The notes beneath the pieces were generated by a model, which was not told where the DNA came from, ran no database searches, and saw only the letters and a program-made list of their open reading frames with translations. A stretch of DNA of 64,000 bases from Candidatus Woesearchaeota archaeon (GTDB lineage Archaea; Nanobdellota; Nanobdellia; Woesearchaeales; GW2011-AR4): NCBI GenBank assembly GCA_016181305.1, contig JACOZN010000002.1, positions 1-64,000 of the forward strand. Reading direction: 5' to 3'. Positions within the stretch are counted from its first letter, which is position 1; every line of letters starts with the position of its first letter. Of this stretch, positions 58,792 to 59,467 are shown in pieces. The position numbers and the translations under genes are program-made.

Positions 58792-59136
58792 ATGCCGTAC
58801 AAACAGGCGATATTGGTAAGGGAAGACCTGAAGCTGCCTAAGGGAAAACTGGCTGCTCAGTCAAGCCACGCTTCTGTAGATGCAACTTTGAAGTCAGACA
58901 AAAAGGTTGTTGATGCTTGGAAAATGGGCGGCGGCAAAAAGGTTGTTTTGAAAGTCAATGACGAAAGGGAATTATTGAAATACAAGCAGACTGCTGAAGA
59001 TTACGGGCTGAGAACAGCCTTGATAACAGATGCAGGGCATACTGTTTTAGAGCCCGGAACTATAACCTGCTTGGGGATAGGCCCTGACTTGGAAGAGAAG
59101 ATTGACAAGGTTACAGGAAAGCTCAGGATGATGTAG
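58792..59136 (+). CDS. pth2: Peptidyl-tRNA hydrolase Pth2
   Basis: YKQAILVREDLKLPKGKLAAQSSHASV...TCLGIGPDLEEKIDKVTGKL. Confidence 0.95.
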   Translation: MPYKQAILVREDLKLPKGKLAAQSSHASVDATLKSDKKVVDAWKMGGGKKVVLKVNDERELLKYKQTAEDYGLRTALITDAGHTVLEPGTITCLGIGPDLEEKIDKVTGKLRMM

Positions 59137-59175: not shown

Positions 59176-59315
59176 GGGCCCATAGCTCAGCCTGGTAGCC
59201 GCCAATTATCAGATTGGCTTGCTGGGCAATTAGAGCGACGGTCTTATATGGCTTTGCTCTAAGCACAAAAGACTAAGTGAGCCGTAGGTCGAGGGTTCAA
59301 AGCCCTTTGGGCCCA
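59176..59315 (+). tRNA. tRNA with anticodon UAU (Ile-like) and introns in the D-loop and anticodon loop
   Basis: Acceptor GGGCCCA/TGGGCCC + A73; D-stem GCTC(59185-59188)/GAGC(59233-59236) with about 35-nt insertion 59198-59232; anticodon stem ACGGT(59238-59242)/GCCGT(59281-59285), loop CTTATA+31-nt intron(59249-59279)+A; T-arm GAGGG-TTCAAAG-CCCTT. Confidence 0.78.
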
Positions 59316-59320
59316 TTACT

Positions 59321-59467
59321 GCTCCCGTGGTGTAGTCCGGATTAAGGAAGTCCACATATGTGGTTGTTCTTTAAGGATAACCAAGCATTTCGGATTTTCG
59401 ATCCGAAGACCTGGGTTCAAATTGCAGAACGCGAGCATGCGGCTGCATGTAAGTCCCGGCGGGAGCA
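59321..59467 (+). tRNA. tRNA-Glu(UUC) with introns in the D-loop and T-loop
   Basis: Acceptor GCTCCCG/CGGGAGC + A73; anticodon arm TCGGA-TTTTCGA-TCCGA(59390-59406); D-loop insertion about 59341-59380; T-stem CTGGG(59411-59415)/CCCGG(59455-59459) with insertion about 59422-59453. Confidence 0.85.

What the first reader, a model, noticed from the sequence alone, without database searches (positions are those of the whole stretch)
59176..59315. Twice-interrupted tRNA with anticodon UAU (candidate tRNA-Ile decoding AUA directly)
Removing about 35 nt from the D-loop and 31 nt from the anticodon loop gives a standard tRNA with loop CTTATAA, i.e. anticodon UAU. Most archaea decode AUA with a CAU tRNA modified to agmatidine by TiaS. 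A few lineages (Nanoarchaeum is the case I recall) use UAU instead. If real, this genome may lack TiaS.
Basis: partly seen in the sequence, partly recalled or inferred. Interest (0 to 1): 0.7.

Follow-up and report, generated by a model that had tools for sequence, protein, structure and literature searches.

The report
Intron-bearing tRNA-Ile(UAU) replacing TiaS
This archaeon reads the isoleucine codon AUA with a tRNA that carries the matching UAU anticodon, instead of the usual CAU tRNA that must be chemically converted by the enzyme TiaS, and the same arrangement turns out to run through hundreds of tiny (DPANN) archaea rather than the two species in which it had been described.

Summary
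Window 59176-59315 holds a tRNA gene with two introns: 34 nt in the D-loop (59196-59229) and 31 nt at the canonical 37/38 site (59249-59279). Both have bulge-helix-bulge (BHB) splice motifs. The spliced product is a complete cloverleaf with loop CUUAUAA and anticodon UAU. An ortholog in the same genus lacks the D-loop intron, and three intronless orthologs carry CTTATAA, so the exon joins are independently confirmed.

TiaS (PF08489) is absent here, from 0/371 genomes of the phylum and from 0/40 DPANN genomes with this tRNA, while archaeal controls score. At least 150 of those 371 genomes have the UAU tRNA at 54 bits or more; other tRNAs tested scored at most 35.6. A scan of named genomes found it in Woesearchaeota, Micrarchaeota, Aenigmatarchaeota and Pacearchaeota. 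The papers I could read report it only from Nanoarchaeum and Korarchaeum.

New here: the 37/38 intron is nearly universal (intronless in 3/371), its 5' end is conserved, and it pairs with the anticodon stem with compensatory changes (30:i4 in 93/93). This could mean an intron-dependent U34 step like that of eukaryotic tRNA-Ile(UAU), but that is unproven. Absence of tRNA-Ile2(CAU) is suggested, not proven.

The parts
59176..59315 (+). tRNA-Ile(UAU) gene, twice interrupted
   Evidence: manual cloverleaf; spliced form called tRNA-Ile(tat) by ARAGORN; R1 match 66.8 bits
59196..59229 (+). D-loop BHB intron, 34 nt (CTGG|TAGCC...GCAA|TTAGAGC)
   Evidence: BHB GCCT/GGGC by inspection; the ortholog L067 (G001) has the uninterrupted CTGGTTAGAGC
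59245..59247 (+). anticodon TAT (UAU), within loop CTTATA|A (59243-59248 + 59280)
   Evidence: intronless orthologs CTTATAA; ARAGORN
59249..59279 (+). canonical 37/38 BHB intron, 31 nt
   Evidence: BHB CTTA (59243-59246) with TAAG (59274-59277); covariation over 46 orthologs
59250..59253 (+). intron positions i2-i5 (GGCT), complementary to exon 29-32 (59240-59243, GGTC): possible alternative hairpin with loop UUAUAU
   Evidence: 91% paired, 30:i4 paired in 93/93 distinct orthologs with compensatory changes
59321..59467 (+). neighbouring tRNA-Glu(UUC), also twice interrupted (D-loop intron about 59341-59380, T-loop intron about 59422-59453; boundaries approximate)
   Evidence: by inspection; assumed spliced form called tRNA-Glu(ttc) by ARAGORN; the same Ile-Glu pair occurs in G001 (L067)
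58792..59136 (+). pth2, peptidyl-tRNA hydrolase 2, immediately upstream
   Evidence: PF01981 5.6e-38; in most relatives the tRNA after pth2 is Lys(CUU) instead

Best explanation
This is a functional tRNA-Ile(UAU) that decodes AUA directly. The tRNA splicing endonuclease removes a D-loop and a 37/38 BHB intron (endonuclease gene and motifs shown, cleavage inferred). The mature tRNA has U34-A35-U36, A37, A38 and A73 and is charged with isoleucine (inferred). It takes the place of the archaeal agmatidine pathway: TiaS is missing from this genome and from the whole sampled phylum (shown), so a CAU tRNA-Ile2 could not be converted to read AUA. The trait was probably present at or near the base of DPANN or spread early within it (inferred from its range). 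The 37/38 intron is conserved beyond the needs of splicing, perhaps because U34 is modified on the intron-containing precursor so that AUG is not misread (hypothesis).
For: Complete cloverleaf with two BHB introns. Uninterrupted D-loop ortholog in the genus (L067) and intronless CTTATAA orthologs. 93 distinct orthologs, all with CTTATA before the intron (the search patterns and model favour this, so it is not an unbiased count). Covariation of the anticodon stem and BHB. Model R1 at 54 bits or more in 150 listed genomes of 371, against at most 35.6 bits for other tRNAs tested. PF08489: 0 in own genome, 0/371 in the phylum, 0/40 DPANN genomes carrying the tRNA, positive in 4/4 archaeal controls. 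A separate tRNA-Ile(GAU) (L001) and Thr(UGU) (L005) exist in the genome. EndA (PF01974) in own genome at 3.2e-28 and in 52/59 relatives over cut-off. AUA codons in pth2 sit in Ile/Val columns (I 925, V 533, M 34).
Against: No RNA data, so splice products and U34 state are inferred. The own genome is 78% complete, so the lack of TiaS rests on the clade. A CAU tRNA-Ile2 is not rigorously excluded: RF00005 and patterns miss many interrupted tRNAs, and the screen recovered only two elongator Met tRNAs. Some phylum genomes have only weak R1 matches, which may be other tRNAs or divergent UAU tRNAs. A TiaS too divergent for PF08489 would be missed.
Confidence: 0.93

Rival explanations
1. The tRNA is a tRNA-Lys(CUU), or another isoacceptor, with unusual splice sites.
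For: Synteny: downstream of pth2 most relatives carry tRNA-Lys(CUU) with the same GGGCCCA acceptor. The mature sequence is equally close to G009 Lys(CUU) and to own Ile(GAU): 58/75 identities each.
Against: CUU cannot be placed at 34-36 without breaking the 5-bp anticodon stem and 5-nt variable loop. Own Lys(CUU) sits elsewhere (L017, contig C5). In G001 the orthologous Ile(UAU)-Glu pair is on a different contig (C24) from pth2 (C3), where Lys(CUU) follows pth2. Intronless orthologs read CTTATAA.
Confidence: 0.02
2. The anticodon intron is spliced at 34/35, giving tRNA-Thr(UGU) (CTT + GTGA).
For: It is arithmetically possible in the sequence.
Against: No BHB at those sites; the perfect BHB is at 37/38; a normal Thr(UGU) is present (L005); the same exon join is seen in intronless genes.
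Confidence: 0.01
3. Pseudogene or decayed copy, with AUA read some other way.
For: Standard scanners do not find it.
Against: All stems intact, compensatory changes across the clade, AUA in use at Ile positions, and no TiaS to support an alternative.
Confidence: 0.02
4. The UAU tRNA is real but redundant: a CAU tRNA-Ile2 with a different, unrecognised modifying enzyme also reads AUA.
For: tRNA-Ile2(CAU) was not exhaustively excluded; lactobacilli are reported to carry both CAU and UAU tRNA-Ile (reference title listed in PMC9976931).
Against: All genuine CAU tRNAs found in 59 genomes are Met tRNAs, nearly all initiators; no TiaS; the UAU tRNA is widely retained.
Confidence: 0.06

Closest known systems
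tRNA-Ile3(UAU) of Nanoarchaeum equitans and Candidatus Korarchaeum cryptofilum (PMC6000648, PMC8450103)
   Same: Archaeal tRNA-Ile with encoded UAU anticodon and no tRNA-Ile2(CAU) needed; the Korarchaeum gene also has one intron (PMC6000648).
   Different: Here it is shared by most of a phylum and by other DPANN phyla, with a strongly conserved 37/38 intron, often with extra D-loop, T-loop or anticodon-stem introns. PMC6000648 treats UAU as a species-specific gain in two of 167 genomes.
Archaeal tRNA-Ile2(CAU) + TiaS (agmatidine)
   Same: Same decoding task, AUA without misreading AUG.
   Different: Uses encoded U34 instead of modified C34; TiaS not found in 371 phylum genomes.
Eukaryotic tRNA-Ile(UAU) with intron-dependent pseudouridines 34 and 36 by Pus1 (PMC11408192; Cyanidioschyzon gene with D-, anticodon- and T-arm introns, PMC9602550)
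   Same: UAU anticodon, 37/38 intron whose sequence engages the anticodon region, multiple introns.
   Different: Archaeal BHB intron and archaeal enzymes; no evidence for pseudouridine here; intron sequences not shown to be homologous.
Mycoplasma mobile tRNA-Ile(UAU) without TilS (PMC4810244)
   Same: Reduced-genome organism reading AUA with UAU without the C34-modifying enzyme.
   Different: Bacterial; TilS not TiaS.

Membership tests
archaeal tRNA-Ile3(UAU) decoding AUA without TiaS | tRNA cloverleaf with UAU at 34-36 after splicing | tested here: met
   orthologs
archaeal tRNA-Ile3(UAU) decoding AUA without TiaS | no TiaS gene in the genome | tested here: met
   own genome 78% complete, the clade evidence carries it; best sub-threshold hits read as unrelated proteins by eye
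archaeal tRNA-Ile3(UAU) decoding AUA without TiaS | no tRNA-Ile2(CAU) | tested here: inconclusive
   only Met CAU tRNAs seen, but the screen misses many interrupted tRNAs and found none in the own genome
archaeal tRNA-Ile3(UAU) decoding AUA without TiaS | AUA used as an isoleucine codon | tested here: met
   93 AUA codons in 30 pth2 genes, at Ile/Val columns, rarely Met
archaeal tRNA-Ile3(UAU) decoding AUA without TiaS | charged by IleRS | not testable with these tools
   A73, A37, A38, C4-G69 and U12-A23 are present by sequence, but charging needs an assay
archaeal BHB tRNA introns | two 3-nt bulges flanking a 4-bp helix, cut by EndA | tested here: met
   motif; EndA present in own genome; cleavage itself not tested
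intron-dependent U34 modification as in eukaryotic tRNA-Ile(UAU) | modified U34 formed only on the intron-containing precursor | not testable with these tools
   only indirect: conserved intron and intron:stem pairing

The most novel reading that the evidence does not exclude
The conserved 37/38 intron of DPANN tRNA-Ile(UAU) is a functional RNA element. Its 5' end pairs with exon 29-32 to form an alternative hairpin that presents U33-U34-A35-U36-A37-U, the substrate form for an intron-dependent modification of U34 (or U36) that lets the tRNA read AUA but not AUG. This would be an archaeal counterpart, by descent or convergence, of the Pus1/intron system of eukaryotic tRNA-Ile(UAU).
Probability: 0.22. 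Interest if true: 0.85.

Novelty: new member of a known kind. Interest (0 to 1): 0.6.

Why it matters
How archaea read AUA without misreading AUG is described as agmatidine almost everywhere, with two species as curiosities. If a whole archaeal superphylum lacks TiaS and uses an encoded UAU anticodon, then the UAU solution is a major archaeal strategy and the statement that tRNA-UAU is almost absent from archaea reflects sampling and tRNA finders that miss interrupted genes. It also raises testable questions: how U34 avoids AUG, how IleRS and LysRS tell this tRNA apart, whether TiaS was lost or never present in DPANN, and why this intron is kept when others come and go.

Tried and rejected
ARAGORN and Rfam defaults on the window found nothing. 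The lysine reading suggested by pth2 synteny was examined and rejected. Thr(UGU) splicing rejected on BHB grounds. Weak PF08489 hits in relatives were read by eye and are unrelated: apparently a transposase, a repeat-rich protein, an aconitase-like, an RlmN-like and a Dph5-like protein. The CAU screen on 59 genomes has low sensitivity for elongator Met and cannot prove absence of Ile2. RF00005 on a closed relative found only 24 tRNAs, too few for an inventory. A 3' alternative hairpin between intron end and 38-42 looked attractive in single sequences but was not significant column by column. The odd 'Omnitrophota' hit L127 looks like a scaffold joined across a run of N.

Full report
What is there. 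The sequence at 59176-59315 is a tRNA gene that default ARAGORN and Rfam at gathering threshold do not report, because it carries two introns. RF00005 gives only a 17-bit partial match. With a 34-nt D-loop intron (59196-59229) and a 31-nt anticodon-loop intron (59249-59279) removed it becomes GGGCCCATAGCTCAGCCTGGTTAGAGCGACGGTCTTATAAGCCGTAGGTCGAGGGTTCAAAGCCCTTTGGGCCCA. ARAGORN reads this as tRNA-Ile with anticodon tat, and with introns allowed it finds the 31-nt intron by itself when only the D-loop intron is removed. Both introns have the archaeal bulge-helix-bulge. At 37/38, CTTA pairs with TAAG between bulges UA|U and UG|A. In the D-loop, GCCT pairs with GGGC between bulges GG|T and AA|T (by inspection). 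The splicing endonuclease gene is present in the genome (PF01974, 3.2e-28).

Independent confirmation of the exon joins. In a same-genus genome (G001, L067) the orthologous tRNA has the same acceptor, anticodon stem and T-arm but an uninterrupted D-loop CTGGTTAGAGC. In three genomes of one other genus of the class the gene has no anticodon intron and reads ...CTGCT CTTATAA GGCAG.... So the predicted splice product exists as genomic sequence elsewhere.

Extent. A pattern for an intron-bearing UAU tRNA hit many order relatives. The 80 loci returned come from Woesearchaeota, Nanoarchaeota/Nanoarchaeia, Pacearchaeota, Micrarchaeota, Aenigmatarchaeota and unnamed archaea, except one 'Omnitrophota' scaffold that looks chimeric, with a run of N near the join. 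L128, titled Candidatus Woesearchaeota RIFCSPLOWO2_12_FULL_38_19, has the same sequence as G020, which is in the window's family, so the window is most likely from a woesearchaeote. A covariance model of the anticodon arm, intron and T-arm half (R1) was run on 371 genomes of the phylum. The 150 listed hits, one per genome, score 54 bits or more. Other tRNAs of the set score at most 35.6 bits (the divergent UAU gene of G016 scores 34.4). From the table I read roughly 85 further genomes with E below 2e-11 (about 45 bits), a hand count. The tally of 370/371 at E<=0.001 should not be used, since low scores include other tRNAs. An intronless UAU gene was found in only 3 of 371.

TiaS. PF08489 (TiaS ferredoxin-like domain) finds nothing in the window's genome even at E<=10, nothing above cut-off in 59 order relatives, nothing in 371 phylum genomes, 243 of them at least 90% complete, and nothing in 40 DPANN genomes that carry the UAU tRNA, including Micrarchaeota and Aenigmatarchaeota. 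The four archaeal control genomes all score. The sub-threshold hits read as unrelated proteins. Screening 59 genomes for CAU tRNAs found only initiator Met tRNAs and two apparent elongator Met tRNAs. That screen is not sensitive enough, and found no CAU tRNA in the window's genome, so the absence of tRNA-Ile2 is suggested, not proved. AUA is common in pth2 of these genomes (93 of 229 Ile codons) and falls in Ile/Val columns.

Identity. The mature tRNA has A73, C4-G69, U12-A23, A37 and A38, but G29-C41, which the genome's own Ile(GAU) also has (L001). Its sequence is equally close to Ile(GAU) and to a Lys(CUU) of the genus (58/75 each), and it stands after pth2 where most relatives have Lys(CUU). 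The lysine reading fails because CUU cannot be placed without breaking the stem and variable loop, and because Lys(CUU) is on contig C5 (L017). A conserved U31-G39 pair (70 of 93 orthologs, the rest mainly U-A) is interesting because PMC9976931 lists a wobble pair (U30-G40) in yeast tRNA-Ile as an antideterminant against LysRS. This is a lead, not a test.

The intron. Across 46 diverse orthologs the anticodon stem and BHB helices covary. The intron's first part is conserved beyond splicing: U-G-R-C-n-n-C-G-Y-U-Y-n-R-n-n-C-A. Its positions i2-i5 are complementary to exon 29-32: 91% of cells paired, 0/500 shuffles as high, slid controls at most 48%. Position 30 pairs with i4 in all 93 distinct orthologs, G:C in 81, C:G in 10, G:U in 2. 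The double changes fall in at least two anticodon-stem backgrounds (CTGCT and CCGCT), but related sequences are counted separately, so the number of independent events is unknown. The resulting hairpin, with loop UUAUAU, is close in predicted energy to the BHB conformer (mean -9.7 against -11.0 kcal/mol; lower in 32 of 93), though in the window's own gene the BHB form is clearly favoured (-11.7 against -6.5). A role in intron-dependent modification of U34, as in eukaryotic tRNA-Ile(UAU) (PMC11408192), is my hypothesis.

Known and new. tRNA-Ile(UAU) is known from Nanoarchaeum equitans and Korarchaeum (PMC6000648; PMC8450103). PMC6000648 concludes that it is otherwise absent and gained species by species. 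I found no open paper reporting it across DPANN or reporting TiaS absence there, but most subscription papers are not searchable here. The gene is therefore a new member of a known kind. The clade-wide replacement and the conserved intron are the new parts.

Noticed in passing
59321-59467: Adjacent tRNA-Glu(UUC) interrupted in both the D-loop and the T-loop; the Ile(UAU)-Glu(UUC) pair also occurs in G001 (L067).
   Followed up: partly
L003, L004, L007, L010, L019 and other RF00005 hits of the window's genome: Very many tRNA genes here carry one or more introns; only 12 of 24 RF00005 hits reach the gathering score, so standard annotation of this clade will miss many tRNAs.
   Followed up: partly
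L038 (G016), L171, L195: UAU tRNAs with an additional intron inside the anticodon stem, between positions 29 and 30, just before GTCTTATA.
   Followed up: no
L062, L068, L069, L267-L283: T-loop introns in many tRNAs of these archaea share a 3' end like GAAAGTCCC, suggesting a common splice context or insertion site.
   Followed up: no
L127 (CP070655.1): Record titled Omnitrophota bacterium carries the DPANN-type tRNA-Ile(UAU) on one side of a run of N; probably a chimeric scaffold.
   Followed up: partly
58792-59136 and relatives L032-L059: The tRNA behind pth2 is Lys(CUU) in most relatives but Ile(UAU) here and in G016: a local tRNA replacement or rearrangement.
   Followed up: partly
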